A stretch of 64,000 nt of DNA, taken from IMG/VR virus record IMGVR_UViG_3300032898_000001, positions 1 to 64,000 of that record; one strand, 5' to 3'. A program made the translations under genes and the position numbers. The stretch comes from a virus. Shown in pieces: positions 4,963 through 42,046 of the stretch. How positions within the stretch are numbered: the stretch's first letter is position 1; the number at the start of each line of letters is the position of its first letter. The notes under the pieces are model-generated. The model was not told where the DNA came from and ran no database searches. It was given only the letters and a program-made list of their open reading frames with translations.

Positions 4963-5310
4963 TCAAGAGGTCTTGGCGTTGGCCGGCCAGAACGCGTCGA
5001 TCTCGGTCTCGGGAACGACGTACTCCGACCGCTTGAAGACCCGGCGAGACGCGACGGGCACCCCGTCGACCGTCGCGGTCTGAGCGGTCCCAATCAGGCG
5101 CCGCATCTGGTTGAGGGCCAGGGTCTTCTGATTCTTCCAGTACTCCTCGGCCATCAGCGCGTAGCGGTAGGCGTCCCTCAGCTCGGCCGGGACCTCCTGG
5201 CTGGTGCCCTTCACCACGTCGGGAAACTGGGCCTTGAGCTGGTTCTGCTCTTCCTCGGCCGTCAGGCCAACCGGAGCCTGCAGGATCAGCGGTTCGTGAG
5301 TCTGGGTCAT
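4963..5310 (-). CDS. Hypothetical protein resembling the C-terminal part of YqaJ-type nucleases
   Basis: 115 aa from the ATG at 5310, chosen because gagggaga lies just upstream and because the promoter at 5342-5370 places transcription start near 5335, leaving the longer reading (to 5346) mostly untranscribed. The segment Y-R-Y-A-L-M-A-E-E-Y-W-K-N-Q-K followed by G-T-A-Q-T-A-T-V-D-G-V-P-V is like the helical tail plus small beta hairpin found at the end of phage YqaJ-like exonucleases, but no catalytic residues are present. It may bind DNA or a nuclease partner. A single early gene embedded, opposite in strand, in the late block. Confidence 0.55.
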   Translation of the reverse strand: MTQTHEPLILQAPVGLTAEEEQNQLKAQFPDVVKGTSQEVPAELRDAYRYALMAEEYWKNQKTLALNQMRRLIGTAQTATVDGVPVASRRVFKRSEYVVPETEIDAFWPANAKTS

Positions 5311-5341
5311 TCGGGATCTCCCTCTTCTCGTTCCTGAGACC

Positions 5342-5370
5342 ACCATACCACCGAGCCGTCAAAAAGTAAA
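5342..5370 (-). promoter_or_regulatory. Phage-type promoter (TTTACT-17-TATGGT)
   Basis: On the minus strand: TTTACT (5370-5365), 17-nt spacer, TGgTATGGT with the -10 at 5347-5342. Member of the recurrent promoter family of this phage; drives the gene at 4963-5310. Confidence 0.75.
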
Positions 5371-5385
5371 CAGAGAGGATCAGTT

Positions 5386-5937
5386 ATGACCGTGTACGCG
5401 CGAAGCGACGTCATGAGCGTTTCGCTGTCCCACGAGCACGGGGGGTGTGGAGCCACGCACTCGCGTCCGGTGACCCACGGCGCCCCGGCACAGTCCTGGG
5501 GCCTGGACTGCCCCGCCTGCGAGAACCACCTCCGCTCCGACCCTCACTGGAGCATCAACCTCTCCGAGGTCCCGGAGACCCCCGACGAGGAGCGCACTCG
5601 CCTCGACCGGGAGAAGAAGGGCCAGACCAACCAGCAGGACCTGCTCGTGGCGGCCATCCTGGCCATCGCTCAGTCCCAGCAGGAGCTTCCGGACAACCTG
5701 GCCAAGGCCATCGCCGCCCTGAGCGAGGCCCGTGAGGCCCAGGAACCGGTCGTCACGCACGCCGAGTCAGCGAGCGACACCGCTCCCGACTCGGCCAACG
5801 AGCCCGATCCCGAGCCAGACCTCAACAAGCTGAAGGTCCCGGAACTGCGAGACCTGGCCGCGTCCCGGAACCTGGACACCGGCGGCACCCGAGCCGACCT
5901 GCTCGAGCGCCTACAGGCCGGCGACACCGAGGACTGA
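5386..5937 (+). CDS. SAP-domain protein with N-terminal Cys/His knuckle
   Basis: 183 aa, ATG after agaggatcagtt. The C-terminal 35 residues (L-N-K-L-K-V-P-E-L-R-D-L-A then G-G-T-R-A-D-L-L-E-R-L) are a clear SAP helix-loop-helix, a small nucleic-acid binding fold. Residues 20-45 contain H-E-H-G-G-C-G and C-P-A-C, likely metal-binding. Between them is a Glu/Gln-rich helical stretch and an acidic linker. Proteins of this build commonly lie between capsid and connector genes in actinophages, often called head-tail connector accessory proteins; its exact role is not known. Confidence 0.65.
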   Translation: MTVYARSDVMSVSLSHEHGGCGATHSRPVTHGAPAQSWGLDCPACENHLRSDPHWSINLSEVPETPDEERTRLDREKKGQTNQQDLLVAAILAIAQSQQELPDNLAKAIAALSEAREAQEPVVTHAESASDTAPDSANEPDPEPDLNKLKVPELRDLAASRNLDTGGTRADLLERLQAGDTED

Positions 5938-5940
5938 TCC

Positions 5941-6126
5941 TTGAGTCGGCGCGGCATCTGCGGGCGCTGCGGCACCGTCCGCCGCGGCACGCGAGCCGCG
6001 CCGACTCAACCGATCACGAGTTGCCTCGACTGCGCCACCCCGCTCTGTCTCAAGCACGCCATCTGGCAGACCGACCGCGTCGGGTACATCTGCCGCAAGT
6101 GTCTTCAGTCTCAGGAAGGTCGGTGA
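5941..6126 (+). CDS. Small Cys-rich zinc-binding protein
   Basis: 61 aa with a TTG start three bases after the upstream stop. Contains C-x-x-C three times (C-G-R-C, C-L-D-C and C-R-K-C) plus an extra Cys and His, so it probably folds around two zinc ions. No further similarity recognised. Too short for more to be said. Confidence 0.5.
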   Translation: MSRRGICGRCGTVRRGTRAAPTQPITSCLDCATPLCLKHAIWQTDRVGYICRKCLQSQEGR

Positions 6127-19937: not shown

Positions 19938-20417
19938 GTGTGGACTCGATTGAAGGCGCTCTTGGCCTATGAGCCGGCCGCGCTGGCCTGGGCGGTGAAC
20001 GGTGGCCTGGCAGCCGCGCTCGTGTTCTTGTTCCACCTCGACGGGACCCAGGCCGCCGCGGTCACCACCATCACGACCGCCCTGGCCGCCGCGTTCACCG
20101 CGGTCAAGGCCCGACCGGTCGCCGTGTCGGTCCTAGTTGGCTCGGCCGCGACGATCGCGACCGCCTGCGCCGCGTTCGGCCTGAACCTCACCCCGCAGGT
20201 GATCGCCACCGGCGTCGCGGTACTTTCGGCTGTCCTGGGACTGGTATTCCGTCAGAACCTGACTCCCGCGATGCGCGTTACGACCACGACGGTCACGATT
20301 TCACCCTCAACCAGTAGCGGCGTACTGTCTACCGGATTCCTGCAGTACGACCTTCACAACGACCCCGGCCCCGGTGGTACCGCGGTCGCTCCGGTCCCTC
20401 CCAAGGAGACGCCGTGA
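19938..20417 (+). CDS. Multi-span membrane protein, holin-like
   Basis: 159 aa from GTG 19938, preceded by tgaggaggttctc. Three or four Ala/Val-rich segments between residues 8 and 110 (A-L-V-F-L-F-H-L, V-T-T-I-T-T-A-L-A-A, V-L-V-G-S-A-A-T-I, G-V-A-V-L-S-A-V-L-G-L-V-F), then a Ser/Thr/Pro-rich tail. Immediately follows the peptidase. Likely holin, alternatively antiholin. Confidence 0.6.
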   Translation: MWTRLKALLAYEPAALAWAVNGGLAAALVFLFHLDGTQAAAVTTITTALAAAFTAVKARPVAVSVLVGSAATIATACAAFGLNLTPQVIATGVAVLSAVLGLVFRQNLTPAMRVTTTTVTISPSTSSGVLSTGFLQYDLHNDPGPGGTAVAPVPPKETP

Positions 20418-33909: not shown

Positions 33910-34656
33910 CTACAGCTGCACGAGGCGGTAAACCACGTTCTCGTCGTTGCGAACGAGGATGTCCCCGTTCTGAGCGACGCCGATCTCCTCGTAGAGGTGA
34001 GAGCCCAGCTTGGTCGACTTCACGGCGACCTGGCCGGCCACGACGGTTGAGAGAGACGGGGCGGTGGTCACCACGGGACGCGGCGGGGCGGGCGGTGCCT
34101 GAACCGGGTGCCGCTCGTCCTCGACGTACGCGTTGACTTCCGCCTCCCGGGCCGCGATCTTGTCGGGATCGGCGAGAAGCGGTCGAAGTGAGGCCGGTAC
34201 CTCCACGACGGGCGCGGCGACGCTCTCGACCTGCTCCGCGGTTGGGACGTAGATGTACACGCCCTGCAGCGGGGAGTTGATCGTGAAGCCCTTCTTCCGC
34301 ATCTGGTAGACCACGGTCGAGATCTGCGGCTGGGTGAAGCCGAGCTTGCCGGTGATCTCGTCACTGGTCAGCTCCACGTACGGGTTGGAGCGGATGAAGT
34401 CCTCGAATCGCCGCTGCTGCGTGACCTGAGCGGTTCCCGCCGTGAGGGACACGCTCGGCCGGTAGACCGCGACGCCGTGGTGAGGCCGCGCGATGTCGTA
34501 ACCGTTGGCCTTGAGGGTGCTGACCGACCCCGACACGGACTTGACGTCGACGTGCAGAGCGGCCGCGATGTCGTCGATGTCGACGTTCTGGTTTGGGTAC
34601 TGCTTGAGGTACGCCAGGACCTGACGAGACAACCCGCGGTTTGCTTGAGATGCCAT
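33910..34656 (-). CDS. Double winged-helix DNA-binding protein
   Basis: 248 aa, ATG after aagagagatca. Two similar winged-helix modules: residues 8-65 (V-L-A-Y-L-K-Q-Y, D-D-I-A-A-A-L-H-V, S-V-S-G-S-V-S-T-L-K) and 85-140 (F-I-R-S-N-P-Y, D-E-I-T-G-K-L-G-F, I-S-T-V-V-Y-Q-M-R). Then a Pro/Ala linker and a small C-terminal beta domain. A likely regulator of the early minus-strand operon, at whose head it lies, behind its own promoter. Confidence 0.7.
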   Translation of the reverse strand: MASQANRGLSRQVLAYLKQYPNQNVDIDDIAAALHVDVKSVSGSVSTLKANGYDIARPHHGVAVYRPSVSLTAGTAQVTQQRRFEDFIRSNPYVELTSDEITGKLGFTQPQISTVVYQMRKKGFTINSPLQGVYIYVPTAEQVESVAAPVVEVPASLRPLLADPDKIAAREAEVNAYVEDERHPVQAPPAPPRPVVTTAPSLSTVVAGQVAVKSTKLGSHLYEEIGVAQNGDILVRNDENVVYRLVQL

Positions 34657-34710
34657 GCGCTGATCTCTCTTTCCGTGAATTCCGAATTCCTGTTCCGGGG
34701 TGTTGCGGTC

Positions 34711-34739
34711 ACCGTATCAAATGGACGGTGACTTGTAAA
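34711..34739 (-). promoter_or_regulatory. Phage-type promoter (TTTACA-17-TACGGT)
   Basis: Minus strand: TTTACA (34739-34734), 17-nt spacer, TGaTACGGT with -10 at 34716-34711. Probably the main promoter of the replication operon 33910 to about 22090. Confidence 0.8.
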
Positions 34740-34749
34740 CAACGAGCTT

Positions 34750-35253
34750 TCAGAGCCGTTCCACGCCGCTCAGCAGGGCGTCGATGTCCCGGTCACACTG
34801 CCGAGCGGCCGCGAGCAGGCGCATCGCGGGGTTGCTGAACGGCCGGCTGGTCGCCCGGGACCCGGTCGACCGCAGCGCGACCAGGACGGCCGGGGCGTCG
34901 GCACAGACGTGGGCGCTGTGACGGTCGTCCTCGTAGTCGAAGGTCACGTCGTCGGGCAGGTCCCGACCGGGACGGCAGACCTGGCACGGCTCCGCGTCGT
35001 CGGGGATCTCCACGGCGGCGGTCGCGGTGCCCGAGTTGCACGGCCCGTCGTGCACGTGGTAGACCACGGAGCGGCCCACGACGTGAAGCACGTAGCGCCC
35101 GGTCCCGTCAGTCAGGTGGTAGAGCTCCATCTCGGTCCAGCGCGGTGAGTCCGGGACCTCGGTCGTGACGTCGGCCAGGAGCTCTCCCTCGAACTCGAGC
35201 ACCTTGTCCACGTCCGGGACCCGCACCAGTCGCGCGATGTCTTGATCTTCCAT
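34750..35253 (-). CDS. Hypothetical protein with Cys/His residues
   Basis: 167 aa from ATG 35253, preceded by gagaggg. Contains an H-V-H-D-G-P-C-N segment and a C-Q-V-C-R pair that could bind zinc; the last 40 residues are helical (M-R-L-L-A-A-A-R-Q-C). Acidic N-terminal half. No family recognised. Divergent from the gene at 35382. Confidence 0.6.
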   Translation of the reverse strand: MEDQDIARLVRVPDVDKVLEFEGELLADVTTEVPDSPRWTEMELYHLTDGTGRYVLHVVGRSVVYHVHDGPCNSGTATAAVEIPDDAEPCQVCRPGRDLPDDVTFDYEDDRHSAHVCADAPAVLVALRSTGSRATSRPFSNPAMRLLAAARQCDRDIDALLSGVERL

Positions 35254-35282
35254 GTTTCCCTCTCCACTCGTTCCTGGCCGGT

Positions 35283-35312
35283 ATCTTAACCGCCTCGTCC
35301 CACCGATTGACA
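35283..35312 (-). promoter_or_regulatory. Possible divergent promoter
   Basis: Minus strand: TGTCAA (35312-35307), 18-nt spacer, TAAGAT (35288-35283). Weaker match than the others, but well placed for the gene at 34750. Confidence 0.45.
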
Positions 35313-35325
35313 CAGCCGCCTCGTG

Positions 35326-35354
35326 TTTACATCTTCACGGCGAGGTGGTAGGGT
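35326..35354 (+). promoter_or_regulatory. Phage-type promoter (TTTACA-17-TAGGGT), plus strand
   Basis: TTTACA (35326-35331), 17-nt spacer, TGgTAGGGT with -10 at 35349-35354. It is the clearest plus-strand member of the family and heads the 35382-43304 operon. Confidence 0.75.
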
Positions 35355-35381
35355 CAGGTCACCGGAACGAGGGAGGAACGA

Positions 35382-35714
35382 GTGACCGAGACCCGGGTCG
35401 CCACGACGGCCGACCTGAAGACCATCTACCACCACGAGGTGGAAAACCGCCTCAGTCGCCGGCTCAACACCTGGATGATCGAGCACCTCGATCCCGACGG
35501 CTCACACGTGCTCATCGCGCGAGAGCCGTACGCCCGTCAGGCGGCCTTCTCGCTCGTGGAGCACTACCGGGCCGAGGTCCTGATGAAGTACGCGGGAGAG
35601 AGCGACCCGTTCATCGCCTTCATCGACGTCCCGGTCGTGGACTGGGAGGCGCTGCGGACCTTCACGGAGCTCCTGACCGTGAGGCGACGCAACGAGGACG
35701 GTGACACGGACTGA
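35382..35714 (+). CDS. Hypothetical early protein
   Basis: 110 aa, GTG after gggaggaacga. Helical N terminus (H-H-E-V-E-N-R-L-S-R-R-L-N) and a mixed C-terminal half ending in an acidic tail. First gene after the plus promoter. No recognised domain. Confidence 0.6.
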   Translation: MTETRVATTADLKTIYHHEVENRLSRRLNTWMIEHLDPDGSHVLIAREPYARQAAFSLVEHYRAEVLMKYAGESDPFIAFIDVPVVDWEALRTFTELLTVRRRNEDGDTD

Positions 35715-35752
35715 TCGGTTAGACCGAACCAGGAACAGGAAACGGAAGAGAC

Positions 35753-36034
35753 ATGTGGTTCACGATCAAGTTTGACATCGGCAAGAAGAGCGACATCCCC
35801 GTTGAGATCGAGGCCGACACCGAGGCCGAGGCCATCGCGGAATTCAAGGCGTTCTTGCTCAACCTCGACGAGAACGGGAACGAGCCCCGCGGCTGGGACG
35901 GCTGGATCGACGACTTCAAGATCTCGGTCGACGGGGAGGATATGCACCCGATCGTGTTCCAGCCGAAGTGGGTCAGCAGCTTCGAGATCTTCGAGGGTCG
36001 CAGCCAGAACTACGGTTGGAAGTACGGAAGGTAG
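35753..36034 (+). CDS. Hypothetical protein
   Basis: 93 aa, ATG after ggaaacggaagagac. Starts W-F-T-I-K-F-D-I, then E-A-D-T-E-A-E-A-I-A-E-F, so a small alpha/beta fold like those often found as uncharacterised phage proteins. Trp-rich C-terminal half. Function unknown. Confidence 0.6.
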   Translation: MWFTIKFDIGKKSDIPVEIEADTEAEAIAEFKAFLLNLDENGNEPRGWDGWIDDFKISVDGEDMHPIVFQPKWVSSFEIFEGRSQNYGWKYGR

Positions 36035-36044
36035 GGACAGCGAC

Positions 36045-36227
36045 GTGGCGGACGACAAGTTTCGCGTCCGAAAGCAGGACAAGGCCGTGTTCAAGGCGGC
36101 CAAGAAGTGGGCCAAGCAGCAGCGCCGGGCCCAGAGCAAGGCGGCCGGGAAGGGCTGCGCCGTGGTCCTGATCGGGGCCGCGGGAGCCGTCGCGGCAGGG
36201 ATCGCCGCGTGGAAGGGGATCGCGTAG
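36045..36227 (+). CDS. Basic single-span membrane microprotein 1 (array member)
   Basis: 60 aa, GTG. Lys/Arg/Gln-rich first 33 residues, then G-K-G-C directly before one membrane span (A-V-V-L-I-G-A-A-G-A-V) and the C terminus W-K-G-I-A. First of seven tandem relatives sharing K-x-G-C, a Gly-rich span and a [K/R]-G-[I/L/V]-[A/S] end. The stop overlaps the next GTG (tagtg). Confidence 0.7.
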   Translation: MADDKFRVRKQDKAVFKAAKKWAKQQRRAQSKAAGKGCAVVLIGAAGAVAAGIAAWKGIA

Positions 36228-36463
36228 TGGCACGAAAGGTCGGGGGACCGAACGACAAGGGCATGAAGAAGGTCATCAAGCGAGATCGCAAGCTCGCCGA
36301 CGACCACTACCGGCGAGCGCGGTACAACCACCAGAGCCCGCGCACGGGCAAGTACCGGCGAGAACCCAAGAAGCAGGGCTGCATCACCATGACCGCGTTG
36401 CTGGTTCTCGCCGCCGGTAGCGGGGTCACGGCAGTCATCTTGACAGTGAGAGGTATCGCGTGA
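36227..36463 (+). CDS. Basic single-span membrane microprotein 2 (array member)
   Basis: 78 aa, GTG overlapping the previous stop. Basic N terminus with H-Y-R-R-A-R-Y-N-H-Q-S-P (nearly repeated in members 3 and 4), then P-K-K-Q-G-C, span T-A-L-L-V-L-A-A-G-S-G-V, end V-R-G-I-A. Confidence 0.7.
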   Translation: MARKVGGPNDKGMKKVIKRDRKLADDHYRRARYNHQSPRTGKYRREPKKQGCITMTALLVLAAGSGVTAVILTVRGIA

Positions 36464-36684
36464 GCGATAAGGACCGCAAGAGCATCCGGCGCGGCACGGA
36501 CAAGACGCAGAAGGCGCTGAAGGACCACTACCGTCGCGCGAAGGTCAACCGGCAGAGCCCCCTGACCGGGCACCCGACTCGGCCGCCGAAGAAGCAGGGG
36601 TGCCTCACCATGACGGCCGTGCTGGCGATGAGTGTAGGCGGTGCCGTCACCGGGATCGTTCTCGCCGCGAAGGGACTGGCATGA
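36460..36684 (+). CDS. Basic single-span membrane microprotein 3 (array member)
   Basis: 74 aa, GTG overlapping by four bases. H-Y-R-R-A-K-V-N-R-Q-S-P-L-T-G, then P-K-K-Q-G-C-L-T-M-T-A, Gly-rich span, end A-K-G-L-A. Very similar to member 4 (about half of residues identical by eye). Confidence 0.7.
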   Translation: MSDKDRKSIRRGTDKTQKALKDHYRRAKVNRQSPLTGHPTRPPKKQGCLTMTAVLAMSVGGAVTGIVLAAKGLA

Positions 36685-36911
36685 ACGCCAAGAAAAAGAA
36701 GCCATTCGACGTCAAGAAGGCGAACAAGGACGCCGCGAAGGCGACCCGCCAGTTTCGACGTCGCGCCCGGCTGAACCACCAGAACCCGCTCAGCGGAAAG
36801 CCGACGCGCCCGGCCAAGAAGCAGGGCTGCCTGTCCATATCTGCGGTCCTCGTCCTGAGTGCCGGCGGGGCGGTGACCGGGATCGTCCTGGCAGCGAGGG
36901 GACTGGCGTGA
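36681..36911 (+). CDS. Basic single-span membrane microprotein 4 (array member)
   Basis: 76 aa, ATG overlapping by four bases. Starts N-A-K-K-K-K-P-F; R-R-R-A-R-L-N-H-Q-N-P-L-S-G; A-K-K-Q-G-C-L-S-I-S-A; span with G-G-A-V-T-G-I-V-L (same as member 3); end A-R-G-L-A. Confidence 0.7.
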   Translation: MNAKKKKPFDVKKANKDAAKATRQFRRRARLNHQNPLSGKPTRPAKKQGCLSISAVLVLSAGGAVTGIVLAARGLA

Positions 36912-37072
36912 CCTTCGACACCGGCCCGAGGGCCGGGACCCGCATCCGCCAGCCGCGGAAGCGCAACGACAAGACCGGCAACATCCGACGGAAGGGCTGC
37001 GCGCTCACCGCTCTCGCCTTCGTGGCGGGAGCGGTGGGGGCCGCGGTCGCGATCAAGACGGGAGTGAGCTAG
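36908..37072 (+). CDS. Basic single-span membrane microprotein 5 (array member)
   Basis: 54 aa, GTG overlapping by four bases; shortest member. Basic N terminus, R-R-K-G-C, span A-L-T-A-L-A-F-V-A-G-A-V-G, end K-T-G-V-S. Confidence 0.65.
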   Translation: MTFDTGPRAGTRIRQPRKRNDKTGNIRRKGCALTALAFVAGAVGAAVAIKTGVS

Positions 37073-37076
37073 AGAC

Positions 37077-37307
37077 GTGGACAGCCCAGATGGTTTCCGC
37101 CGCAAGGACCCGAAGGGATACGCCCGCGGCAGGGAACTCAGTCGACAAATCAACCAGAAGCGCTCGAGTAGCTACCGGGTCACGAACATCAAGAAGGCCA
37201 AGGACAACCGCAGCGCGCCGGGCTGCGCCGTGATCGCTCTCTGCGTCGGCGTCGGCCTGCCGGGCGCGATCATCGGGACCGTGCTCGTGGCGAGGGGCCT
37301 AGCGTGA
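37077..37307 (+). CDS. Basic single-span membrane microprotein 6 (array member)
   Basis: 76 aa, GTG. Charged N terminus with K-R-S-S-S-Y-R, then S-A-P-G-C, span V-I-A-L-C-V-G-V-G-L-P-G, end A-R-G-L-A. The Lys before G-C is replaced by Pro. Confidence 0.65.
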   Translation: MDSPDGFRRKDPKGYARGRELSRQINQKRSSSYRVTNIKKAKDNRSAPGCAVIALCVGVGLPGAIIGTVLVARGLA

Positions 37308-37528
37308 GCAACCGCTCACGGCGGCGCAAGATCCGGAAGGCCCAGCGAGAGTTCCGGGAGACGGGCCGGCGCTACGGCGGGGAGACCGTCTATCCGGCGG
37401 GAGCCCGTGAGGCCAAGAACAGGAAGATCCAGGACGCGATGAGCGGCCGGCGAAAGGGCTGCGTCGTCTCGGCCATCTGGCTGAGCGCCGCGGTGATCGG
37501 CGCGATCGCGACCGTGAAGGGAAGCTGA
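37304..37528 (+). CDS. Basic single-span membrane microprotein 7 (array member)
   Basis: 74 aa, GTG overlapping by four bases. Very basic start (N-R-S-R-R-R-K-I-R-K-A), then R-R-K-G-C, span V-V-S-A-I-W-L-S-A-A-V-I-G, end V-K-G-S. Next gene (helicase) starts two bases later. Confidence 0.65.
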   Translation: MSNRSRRRKIRKAQREFRETGRRYGGETVYPAGAREAKNRKIQDAMSGRRKGCVVSAIWLSAAVIGAIATVKGS

Positions 37529-37529
37529 C

Positions 37530-38981
37530 GTGGAGCTGAGCGCGGACCAGGACGCGGCACTGACGGCGATCCTGAACTGGTTCATCGAGGCCCCGAGCCC
37601 CGAGTTCTGCACCAAGAAGGAGTGCTGCCCGCGGGACCACTCCCACAACCTGACCTGCGCTCAGCCTCACACCCACGGCCGGGCCCGGGACTTTGAGCCG
37701 TTCGCGCTCGGGGGCCTGGCCGGCTCGGGCAAGACCACGATGGTGAGGCAGGTGGAGTGGGCCCTGGACGTGAAGGCCGCGTTTGGGACCCCCACCAACA
37801 AGGCCGCGGCCGTGCTCCGCGGGAAGCTCCATGACGACCAGAAGGAACGCGTCCGCACCTACCACTCCCTGCTGTACAAGCCGTTCTCGCGGTTCTGGTG
37901 CGGCCAGACGGGGCGAGACGTAGTGCCCGTCGAGAACGAGGACGCGAGCGAGGACGACCTGCACGAGTTCGTGCCGTGCTGGCAGGGCACGCACCTGCCG
38001 CGCCACGACTGCTCCATCCAGGAGGAGCTCAAGTTCACGCGCCGGGAGCACCTCGAGGGCCACCGGCACCTGCTCGTGCTCGACGAGGCGTCCATGGTCG
38101 GCCAGGAGCGCGTGGAGGAGATCCGCCAGTTCGGGATCCCGCTACTCCTGGTCGGGGACCACGGCCAGCTCCCGCCCGTCAAGGCCGTCGGGGGCGCGAA
38201 CCGCTGGATGCGGAAGCCGGACGTGGTCCTCACGCAGAACCACCGCCAGGGCGAGGCCAGCGGGATCGTCACGGCCGCGCTCTCGGTCCGGGAGCGCGGG
38301 GTCCTGGACCACGGGCGGTACGGCGACGGCTCCACGGTCTGCGCGTCGGCCAGGCGGCACCCCGAGATCCTGGCCGTCATGGACCCGGAGCGGTTCGCGC
38401 CCGGTCCCGAACGCGTGATCATCTGTCACACGAACGCGGTCCGCGCCCAGGTCAACAAGCAGTTTCACGCGTTCCTGACCGACCAGCCCGGCCCCGTAGC
38501 CGGGGACCGGGTGGTGAGCCTGGCCAACGTGGAGGGCGTGGTCGTGGACCGGGTCAACGAGAAGTGGGTGCCGCGCCGCGGCGCCCCGAAGGAGGGAGAC
38601 GCCGCGCCGTTGATCGCGATCGAGAACGTGTACAACGGCTGCACGGGCACGGTCCGAGAGGTCCTGGGCTCGTCGCGGCACACGGTGCGGCTCGTGGTGG
38701 AGCTGGACGCGGACAGCCAGGGACGGCCCGGCACTCACGTCAGCGTCGCGGCCCTGAGCGCGCAGTTCGGGCGAGAGACCCAGGTCCCGTACAACGAGCG
38801 GCCGCACGGCGCGCACCAGCTCTGGGACTTCGCCTACGCCCTGACCGCTCACAAGGCGCAGGGCAGCGAGTTCGACGACGTGATCGTGCTCGACACCCAC
38901 CCGCCGGAGTACCGGGCCTGGCTGTACACGGCCATGACCCGGGCCAAGAAGCGCTTGCTCGTGATCGACTGGCGGTCGTGA
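37530..38981 (+). CDS. RecD/Dda-like SF1B helicase
   Basis: 483 aa, GTG. Walker A G-L-A-G-S-G-K-T-T (about residue 65), Walker B L-V-L-D-E-A-S-M, motif III G-D-H-G-Q-L-P-P, N-H-R-Q, and the C-terminal UvrD-type motifs A-H-K-A-Q-G-S-E-F and T-A-M-T-R-A-K-K. An insertion with C-C-P-R-D-H-S-H near the N terminus (about 28-48) could bind metal. Likely replication or recombination helicase (5'-3' by family). Confidence 0.85.
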   Translation: MELSADQDAALTAILNWFIEAPSPEFCTKKECCPRDHSHNLTCAQPHTHGRARDFEPFALGGLAGSGKTTMVRQVEWALDVKAAFGTPTNKAAAVLRGKLHDDQKERVRTYHSLLYKPFSRFWCGQTGRDVVPVENEDASEDDLHEFVPCWQGTHLPRHDCSIQEELKFTRREHLEGHRHLLVLDEASMVGQERVEEIRQFGIPLLLVGDHGQLPPVKAVGGANRWMRKPDVVLTQNHRQGEASGIVTAALSVRERGVLDHGRYGDGSTVCASARRHPEILAVMDPERFAPGPERVIICHTNAVRAQVNKQFHAFLTDQPGPVAGDRVVSLANVEGVVVDRVNEKWVPRRGAPKEGDAAPLIAIENVYNGCTGTVREVLGSSRHTVRLVVELDADSQGRPGTHVSVAALSAQFGRETQVPYNERPHGAHQLWDFAYALTAHKAQGSEFDDVIVLDTHPPEYRAWLYTAMTRAKKRLLVIDWRS

Positions 38982-39226
38982 TGGCCCCTCCTCTCGTGGT
39001 GAGGCGGTTCACGCCGGGCCGGTTCAGTGACCCGGCTCACTTCGTGCTCGGTGACCCGCGAGAGCACGGCTGGCGCTGGGAGTGCCAGCTGTGTGGCACG
39101 ACCGGTCAGTACCTCAACACGCGGTGGCGCCGGGACCCGACGCTGTGGGAGCGCTGCGTGGCCGGCGGGCTGAAACACCTGCGGAAGCACGTCCCGTTGG
39201 TGCTGTCCATTCACCTGTTTACATAG
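38981..39226 (+). CDS. Small zinc-knuckle protein
   Basis: 81 aa, ATG overlapping the helicase stop (tgatg). W-E-C-Q-L-C-G-T-T-G-Q-Y and a later C plus H-L-R-K-H could complete a zinc site. No known family. The stop overlaps a TTTACATAG string that looks promoter-like. Confidence 0.55.
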   Translation: MAPPLVVRRFTPGRFSDPAHFVLGDPREHGWRWECQLCGTTGQYLNTRWRRDPTLWERCVAGGLKHLRKHVPLVLSIHLFT

Positions 39227-39268
39227 TATGGTCGTACCAGGAACCGAAGACGGAAGAGAGGAACGAGG

Positions 39269-39559
39269 ATGACGATCTTTCTCCTGCTGGTCGTCGCCCT
39301 GAGCTGCTGGCTCGTGGGCTATGGCATCGGCCGGCGCCGGGCGAGGAAGCAGCTCGCGGCGCGGGCGCTACAACGAGAGCCGCTGACCTGCGACTGCGGC
39401 CACCTGTACACGTCTCACAAGGTCACGAAGCCCTACCGGTGCACCGCGGCCTTAAAGACGGGAAGCTCCCTGCCCTGTGCCTGCCAGCGCTACGTGGGAC
39501 CGGTCCCCGCGCCTACCCTGGCCGAGCTCAGGCCCGAGGCCCCGAAGGTCGGTGAGTGA
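39269..39559 (+). CDS. Membrane-anchored Cys-rich protein (paralogue 1)
   Basis: 96 aa, ATG after agagaggaacgagg. One N-terminal span (F-L-L-L-V-V-A-L-S-C-W-L-V-G-Y-G-I-G), basic stop-transfer R-R-R-A-R-K, then C-D-C-G-H-L-Y, C-T-A-A-L-K, C-A-C-Q-R-Y-V-G-P, a metal-binding soluble part. Shares this plan with the next gene. Confidence 0.6.
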   Translation: MTIFLLLVVALSCWLVGYGIGRRRARKQLAARALQREPLTCDCGHLYTSHKVTKPYRCTAALKTGSSLPCACQRYVGPVPAPTLAELRPEAPKVGE

Positions 39560-39878
39560 CGTGGACGTCCCTACCGTGTTCGAGACGATCAGTCTGCTGC
39601 TCGTGGGCTACGGCGTCGGGAACCTGAGCGGGCGCCGTCACCGGAAGACAGCGCGACCCGCGGGACCGAAGTACACCTGCGGTTGCACCCACGACCTCTC
39701 GGTCCACGACCCGAAGACCGGCCGGTGCCACGCCGGGGTCAAGAGGCTCAAGTACGACTACGTCGGAGACGTGGTGGGCTACATCTATCCGCAGTGCCCC
39801 TGCAAGCAGTACGTGGGCCCGAAGCCGCCACCCGACCTGAAGGACCTGTGGCCCGAGGCACCGGGAGTGGGAGACTGA
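39552..39878 (+). CDS. Membrane-anchored Cys-rich protein (paralogue 2)
   Basis: 108 aa from GTG 39552 (overlap with the upstream gene; GTG 39561 possible). N-terminal hydrophobic stretch I-S-L-L-L-V-G-Y-G-V-G, then C-G-C-T-H-D-L-S-V-H, G-R-C-H, C-P-C-K-Q-Y-V-G-P and P-E-A-P-G-V-G, matching paralogue 1 (C-x-C-x-H, C-x-C-x-x-Y-V-G-P, P-E-A-P-x-V-G). Probably duplicated. Confidence 0.6.
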   Translation: MSDVDVPTVFETISLLLVGYGVGNLSGRRHRKTARPAGPKYTCGCTHDLSVHDPKTGRCHAGVKRLKYDYVGDVVGYIYPQCPCKQYVGPKPPPDLKDLWPEAPGVGD

Positions 39879-41176: not shown

Positions 41177-41703
41177 CCGAGACGTTCAACGTCCAGCGCA
41201 GCGCCGAGGCCCGTGACCTGGTGGACGAGATGCGCCGCCAGCTGGAACGCTGGGGGAAGCAGTCCTACCCGCCCGGCACCAGCGAGGTGTACCGGGAGGC
41301 CTGTGACCTGGCCCGCGCCGAGTGTGACCAGGCGGAACGAGACGGGCGACTGACCTGGTTCCACATCCTCAAAGAGGAGTTCTTCGAGGTCGCCAGTGAG
41401 GAGGACGACCGCCGGCTCGAGAAGGAGCTGATCCAGGTCATGGCCGTGTGCGGGTCGTGGCTGCGGGACCTGCGCGAGAAGCGAGGCCACCGGGGTGCTC
41501 GGGTGGGAGTTCGGAGCGGGGACCGCGTGACCGTGGACTCGGGCCTGAACCACGACGGTCCCGTGACGGGAACGGCCGAGTTCGTCGATGAGGTGACGCT
41601 GCACGTGCGGGACGAGGTGAAGAAGGGGCTGCTGCACGTCTACGCGTGGGAGGACGTGGCGAACCTGACCGTGACGCGAGGAAGGGAGCACCAGGATGAG
41701 TGA
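41173..41703 (+). CDS. MazG-like NTP pyrophosphohydrolase with C-terminal beta domain
   Basis: 176 aa, GTG overlapping by four bases. Residues 55-100: H-I-L-K-E-E-F-F-E-V-A-S-E-E-D-D then L-E-K-E-L-I-Q-V-M-A-V, the E-E-x-x-E ... E-x-x-x pattern of MazG/PRA-PH helices. Residues 105-170 form a small KOW/SH3-like beta domain (G-D-R-V-T-V-D-S). Likely house-cleaning of nucleotides or ppGpp-related signals; substrate unknown. Confidence 0.6.
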   Translation: MTETFNVQRSAEARDLVDEMRRQLERWGKQSYPPGTSEVYREACDLARAECDQAERDGRLTWFHILKEEFFEVASEEDDRRLEKELIQVMAVCGSWLRDLREKRGHRGARVGVRSGDRVTVDSGLNHDGPVTGTAEFVDEVTLHVRDEVKKGLLHVYAWEDVANLTVTRGREHQDE

Positions 41704-42046
41704 CGGGAAGCAGAAGCTCGTGTCGGTGTCGGTCCACGACTGCGAGCTGCAGGTGTTCCGGGCCGGCGGGAAGGGCGGCCAGCACCAGAACAAGACGAGC
41801 TCCGGCGTGCGCCTGATCCACCACCCGTCGGGGGCCCGCGGCGAGTCCCGCGAGGAACGGAGCCAGCTGCAGAACAAGAAGAACGCGTTCCTGCGGCTGA
41901 TCGAGACGCCCGCGTTCCGGGTGTGGCTCGGGAAGATGCTGCTGCAGGGCCCGCCGGCCGAGGTGGTCGTGGCGGAGGAGATGCGAGAGGAGAACCTGGT
42001 CGTGGAGGGCAAGGAGAACGGGAAGTGGGTGAGGATCGATGAGTGA
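41696..42046 (+). CDS. Peptide chain release factor-like protein with GGQ motif
   Basis: 116 aa, ATG overlapping by eight bases. Residues 18-45: F-R-A-G-G-K-G-G-Q-H-Q-N-K-T-S-S-G-V-R-L, the catalytic GGQ loop of class I release factors, followed by the usual S-R-E-E-R-S-Q-L-Q-N-K helix. No codon-recognition domain, so it resembles ArfB/YaeJ-type rescue hydrolases, which release peptides from stalled ribosomes. The basic C-terminal tail of ArfB is not obvious here. May work with the phage tRNAs to keep translation going. Confidence 0.85.
   Translation: MSDGKQKLVSVSVHDCELQVFRAGGKGGQHQNKTSSGVRLIHHPSGARGESREERSQLQNKKNAFLRLIETPAFRVWLGKMLLQGPPAEVVVAEEMREENLVVEGKENGKWVRIDE

What the first reader, a model, noticed from the sequence alone, without database searches (positions are those of the whole stretch)
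36045..37528. Tandem array of seven related membrane microproteins
Seven genes in 1.5 kb, most overlapping by 1-4 bases, encode basic proteins of 54-78 residues. They share a Lys/Arg-rich N terminus, G-C directly before the span, a Gly-rich single membrane span and a K/R-G-I/L/V-A/S C terminus. Members 3 and 4 are close duplicates, the rest have diverged, mainly in the cytoplasmic part. Such a diversified set may target several host membrane proteins or defence systems, form a mixed complex, or bring nucleic acid to the membrane. I know of no described family with this plan.
Basis: partly seen in the sequence, partly recalled or inferred. Interest (0 to 1): 0.75.

Follow-up and report, generated by a model that had tools for sequence, protein, structure and literature searches.

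The report
Seven-gene array of phage membrane microproteins
An uncultivated, probably actinobacterial phage carries seven adjacent, overlapping genes for tiny, strongly positively charged, single-span membrane proteins that have no detectable relatives elsewhere and are co-translated just ahead of its DNA helicase; the array is real and under protein-level selection, but what it does is still an inference.

Summary
Seven ORFs (60, 78, 74, 76, 54, 76, 74 aa) fill 36045-37528. All have phage-like codon usage, and m2/m3/m4 show purifying selection. They are among the most basic proteins of the 95.5-kb phage record. All seven, and almost only they, carry G-C directly before a C-terminal span. m2, m3, m4 and m6 are clear paralogues. 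m1, m5 and m7 join through the G-C/span/tail plan and pairwise matches. New details: (i) two span classes, about 22 and 18-19 residues; (ii) a small-xxx-small helix-packing motif at one fixed place in 7/7 spans; (iii) the C-terminal K/R-G codons also form the Shine-Dalgarno sequence of the next gene, yet other tight junctions of this phage almost never use K/R-G (1/73), so the tail is family-specific; (iv) close relatives with the orthologous helicase carry three other small genes at this site. No homologue was found in phage records, plasmids, protein-family and PDB libraries, about 80 related virus records or 394 bacterial genomes. Best reading: a lineage-specific set of tail-anchored microproteins that oligomerise in the host membrane through a constant span and expose variable basic cytosolic heads, probably as host-directed effectors; a replication tether is the main rival.

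The parts
36045..36227 (+). m1, 60 aa, 18-residue span class, ends WKGIA
36227..36463 (+). m2, 78 aa, 22-residue span class; 1-nt overlap with m1
36460..36684 (+). m3, 74 aa, 22-residue span class; 4-nt overlap
36681..36911 (+). m4, 76 aa, closest paralogue of m3; 4-nt overlap
36908..37072 (+). m5, 54 aa, shortest head, short (18-19 residue) span class, ends KTGVS
37077..37307 (+). m6, 76 aa, 22-residue span class, second Cys inside the span
37304..37528 (+). m7, 74 aa, 18-residue span class, ends VKGS; related to m5 (E 1.8e-5)
37530..38981 (+). Dda/RecD-like SF1 helicase; its start is 1 nt after the m7 stop and its ribosome-binding site lies in the m7 K-G codons
35382..35714 (+). 110-aa gene that opens the rightward operon; counterparts of similar size and N-terminal sequence sit at the same place in the helicase relatives
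35753..36034 (+). 93-aa gene directly before the array

Best explanation
The array is a lineage-specific, tandemly duplicated set of C-terminally anchored (N-in) membrane microproteins. Shown: seven translated-looking genes, constant G-C + span + tail, variable strongly basic heads, tight coupling to each other and to the helicase, absence at the same site in relatives that have the orthologous helicase. Inferred: the products insert with the basic head in the cytoplasm; the conserved small-xxx-small face lets the spans pack into homo- and hetero-oligomers made in similar amounts because the genes are translationally coupled; the heads, which diverge fastest, contact cytosolic or membrane-bound host partners. 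The most likely role is that of accessory host-directed membrane effectors (takeover, exclusion of other phages, or counter-defence) made together with the replication genes.
For: Coding and selection; shared plan, nearly unique in the record; paralogy; highest net charge in the phage; small-xxx-small at the same place in 7/7 spans, reached by 0/20000 span shuffles, or 87/20000 with m2/m3/m4 counted once; heads less conserved than hinge and span; coupled junctions with embedded ribosome-binding sites. Accessory nature: helicase relatives (about 52% identity) keep the flanking genes but have three other small genes without a strong span at this site, and no credible profile match in about 80 related records. 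Precedent: small single-span phage proteins outside lysis cassettes can be toxic to actinobacteria (the 58-aa Amelie gp43, PMC11797047).
Against: No expression, location or interaction data. No relative with a known function. Position inside the replication operon fits a replication role at least as well. Head divergence could be relaxed constraint rather than target diversification; positive selection was not shown. The short tail outside the membrane leaves little to act on the outside.
Confidence: 0.4

Rival explanations
1. Replication tether: the basic heads bind phage DNA or the replisome and the spans hold it at the membrane, as phi29 p16.7 organises membrane-associated DNA replication.
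For: Co-translation with the helicase; operon continues to the DNA primase at 43.5 kb; heads carry net +8 to +15; precedent p16.7 (PMC11476376).
Against: Absent in relatives that keep the same helicase; a core replication part would be expected to be conserved; seven diverged copies are not needed for a tether; no sequence match to any solved structure.
Confidence: 0.25
2. Membrane-permeabilising or lysis-timing proteins (holin-like, pinholin- or toxin-like).
For: Short single spans rich in Gly/Ala, basic ends; single-span phage proteins are often toxic when overproduced (PMC11797047, PMC13148394).
Against: The phage has its own lysis genes elsewhere: holin 19938-20417 and endolysin-like 63297-64238; the array lies in the replication operon; seven paralogues with a conserved cytosolic hinge are not explained.
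Confidence: 0.15
3. The likeness of m1, m5 and m7 to the rest is convergent: unrelated small basic single-span proteins with a common juxtamembrane motif and a tail dictated by the next gene's ribosome-binding site.
For: With G-C and tail kept, shuffles often reach their profile scores; K/R-G codons coincide with AGGG-type ribosome-binding sites.
Against: Only 1 of 73 other tight junctions in the phage uses K/R-G at that place; m5/m7 match pairwise with E 1.8e-5 and m1/m2 with E 0.001; small-xxx-small falls at the same place in them too.
Confidence: 0.15
4. Not genes: chance open frames in GC-rich DNA.
For: High GC gives many spurious open frames.
Against: Codon scores, third-position GC, gene-finder result and dN/dS.
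Confidence: 0.02

Closest known systems
phi29 p16.7 (membrane organiser of phage DNA replication)
   Same: Small phage membrane protein expressed with early replication genes; proposed nucleic-acid contact on the cytosolic side
   Different: p16.7 is a single gene with a folded functional domain and, from my knowledge, an N-terminal anchor; here the anchor is C-terminal, there are seven paralogues and no sequence match
Single-span toxic proteins of mycobacteriophages (e.g. Amelie gp43, 58 aa; lysis-cassette protein gp29)
   Same: Size, single span, actinophage setting
   Different: Single genes, no tandem array; tblastn of m3, m4, m6 and m7 against 50,697 phage records gave no credible match
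Membrane parts of prophage exclusion systems (RexB, Sbash gp31, Butters gp31)
   Same: Phage-encoded membrane proteins that act on infection by other phages
   Different: Those have four spans and a cytosolic partner protein (PMC6426596, PMC7542560); here one span each

Membership tests
Phage holin / lysis-cassette protein | Encoded next to endolysin, membrane span(s) | tested here: not met
   Holin 19938-20417 and endolysin-like gene 63297-64238 lie elsewhere; the array is in the replication operon
phi29 p16.7-type replication organiser | Sequence relation to the solved p16.7 domain | tested here: not met
   Profile A1 against all PDB chain sequences: only one irrelevant match, E 0.73
phi29 p16.7-type replication organiser | DNA binding and membrane location | not testable with these tools
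   Needs an experiment; heads are strongly basic
Bacterial lipoprotein | Lipobox Cys after the hydrophobic stretch of an N-terminal signal | tested here: not met
   In all seven the Cys precedes the hydrophobic span, after a basic head of 29-51 residues
Type IV prepilin-like protein | Gly at the cleavage site followed by a hydrophobic stretch with Glu at +5 | tested here: not met
   No Glu in any span (sequences); the +5 Glu criterion is from my knowledge
RexB / Sbash gp31-type exclusion protein | Four spans with a partner gene | tested here: not met
   One span each; definition from PMC6426596
phrog_11730 (unknown function) | Significant match of the members | tested here: not met
   Only m7, E 0.0096; the model also rings in E. 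coli, B. subtilis and other control genomes, so it is unspecific
PADLOC anti-phage defence families | Match to a model | tested here: not met
   None up to E 1

The most novel reading that the evidence does not exclude
A modular membrane platform: seven coupled paralogues with one interchangeable span assemble into mixed oligomers whose different basic heads recruit or block several partners at once (phage DNA and replisome, or several host membrane systems).
Probability: 0.15. Interest if true: 0.75.

Novelty: new variant of a known kind. Interest (0 to 1): 0.45.

Why it matters
Small orphan membrane proteins are common in phages but mostly unstudied. A sevenfold, diversified and translationally coupled set with one constant membrane module would give a natural series in which the role of the span and of the head can be separated, and a test of whether phages build mixed membrane complexes from duplicated microproteins.

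Tried and rejected
Pattern scan of IMG/VR for G-C + span + tail: four chance hits. Scans with m3 and with the m2/m3/m4 alignment: no relative; the seven-row alignment was too diverse to scan with. Relatives fetched through DNA polymerase, helicase and major capsid protein, then searched whole with the family profile: nothing credible; the best-looking ORF (L295, GDGC + span) has no basic head. 394 genomes of the class of Dactylosporangium: 12 marginal matches; the five read out (L202, L203, L204, L207, L211) showed no small protein of this plan. A 42-bp blastn match in Mycobacterium phage Hashim76 lies antisense to a gene. Plasmids: none. Considered and dropped: lipoprotein, prepilin, four-span exclusion protein.

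Full report
What is there. The window is bases 1-64000 of an IMG/VR virus record of 95,531 bases. The record has a tape measure protein, holin, terminase, DNA polymerase I, helicases and primase, about 65% GC and DNA polymerase matches mostly to Arthrobacter, Gordonia, Micrococcus and Microbacterium phages at under 40% identity. It is therefore a new, probably actinobacterial, tailed phage; the host is inferred. They form part of a rightward operon that begins at about 35.38 kb and continues through the Dda/RecD-like helicase towards the primase at 43.5-46.1 kb. No terminator-like site was found on the + strand in 34600-39400.

Are they genes? Yes, as far as sequence can tell. A codon model trained on clear genes gives each of the seven frames a positive score, with the other frames of the same stretch negative or clearly lower. 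A simple dynamic-programming gene finder written for this record chose all seven with the same starts. Over the 50 codons shared by m2, m3 and m4, third positions carry most differences, and dN/dS is about 0.16 for m3/m4 and m2/m3 and about 0.38 for m2/m4.

Are they one family? m2, m3 and m4 are plainly so (47-67% identity), and m6 joins them (E 4.5e-6 with m3). m5 and m7 match each other (E 1.8e-5); m1 matches m2 and m7 weakly (E 0.001-0.004). In leave-one-out profile tests m2, m3, m4 and m6 exceed all 2000 free shuffles; m1, m5 and m7 are reached by 1, 14 and 5. If shuffles keep G-C and the last four residues, m1, m5 and m7 are no longer distinguished. So the array has a firm core and three members tied to it by position, plan and motif. 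The spans fall into two classes that follow this split: 22 residues (m2, m3, m4, m6) and 18 (m1, m7; m5 is 18 or 19 depending on how its KTGVS tail is aligned). The order in the array is short-long-long-long-short-long-short.

What is constant, what varies. Constant: G-C directly before the span, a small-xxx-small pair ten and six residues before the end of the span in all seven (none of 20,000 sets of shuffled spans reached 7/7 at any one place; with m2/m3/m4 counted once, 87 of 20,000 did), and a Gly in the tail, after K or R in six of seven. Such motifs are known from membrane-protein work to pack helices (general knowledge), so oligomers are a fair inference, not a result. Varying: the heads. 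Between m3 and m4 only 5 of 24 aligned head residues agree, against 17 of 24 in the hinge and 19 of 26 in span and tail. All seven are at or near the top of the record's 150 predicted proteins in net positive charge per residue. By the positive-inside rule the head is cytosolic.

The C-terminal motif has a second reading. In the overlapping junctions the K/R-G codons (AAGGGG, AGAGGT, AAGGGA, AGGGGA, AGGGGC) stand where the ribosome-binding site of the next gene must be, and the m7 K-G codons do the same for the helicase. This could have made the tail an artefact of translation signals. However, among 73 other close junctions of the record only one has K/R-G at that place. The tail is thus a property of this family that also serves as signal, as expected if a unit 'gene plus signal for the next copy' was duplicated. 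It also means that conservation of the tail should not be read as protein function alone.

Where else? Nowhere that could be searched. tblastn of m3, m4, m6 and m7 against 50,697 phage records found nothing better than E 3, and m3 against plasmids nothing. All seven were scanned against Pfam, PHROGs, NCBIfam and PADLOC, and the family profile against PDB chain sequences, without a meaningful match. Related virus records were gathered through DNA polymerase, helicase and major capsid protein, and their whole records searched with the family profile: no credible match. Three relatives (about 78, 111 and 112 kb) have the orthologous helicase at about 52% identity and the same upstream neighbours, but carry three other small genes, without a strong span, between them. 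The site is therefore a variable pocket, and the array is specific to this phage or its immediate kin. Limits: many records are fragments, the tools may leave out the closest kin of the window, metagenome contigs could not be scanned, and very short diverged relatives are easily missed, although members as distant as m1 or m7 score 20-24 bits in leave-one-out tests.

How it may work. I commit to host-directed membrane effectors acting as mixed oligomers, at 0.4. The reasons are the accessory, variable site, the absence in relatives, the duplication, and faster change in the heads. Against it stands the coupling to the helicase, which fits a replication tether (0.25), for which phi29 p16.7 is a precedent (PMC11476376). 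Lysis is unlikely as a main role because the phage has lysis genes elsewhere, though toxicity of single-span phage proteins in actinobacteria is documented (PMC11797047, PMC13148394). No positive selection was shown, so 'diversified against several targets' remains a guess.

Novelty. The kind (small orphan phage membrane proteins) is known; a sevenfold coupled paralogue array with this plan was not found in the literature searches made here, which cover open-licence papers only.

Noticed in passing
window 39269-39559 and 39561-39878 (+): A second tandem pair of paralogous small membrane proteins just downstream of the helicase: N-terminal span, Arg-rich stretch, Cys/His-rich C-terminal part; 37% identity, E 7e-16; no match for the second in phage records.
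   Followed up: partly
L040-L042 (three relatives), about 5300-6014: At the array's site the relatives carry three small genes of 61-81 aa, of which the first two look distantly alike.
   Followed up: no
L051 5180-5431 and 5428-5592; L044 5435-5665: Small genes shortly upstream of the helicase with a shared, extremely basic C terminus (RRYVEVTARKHRARRRRRK-like), apparently duplicated in tandem in L051.
   Followed up: no
G000 87706-91584 (beyond the window): 1292-aa protein whose same stretch matches both ADP-ribosyltransferase and head maturation protease families; an ADP-ribosylglycohydrolase lies at window 61850-62773.
   Followed up: no
G000 74270-75940 (beyond the window): 556-aa protein matching phrog_850, RNA-binding protein.
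   Followed up: no
window 41696-42046 (+): RF-1 domain release-factor-like protein of 116 aa in the same operon as the array.
   Followed up: no
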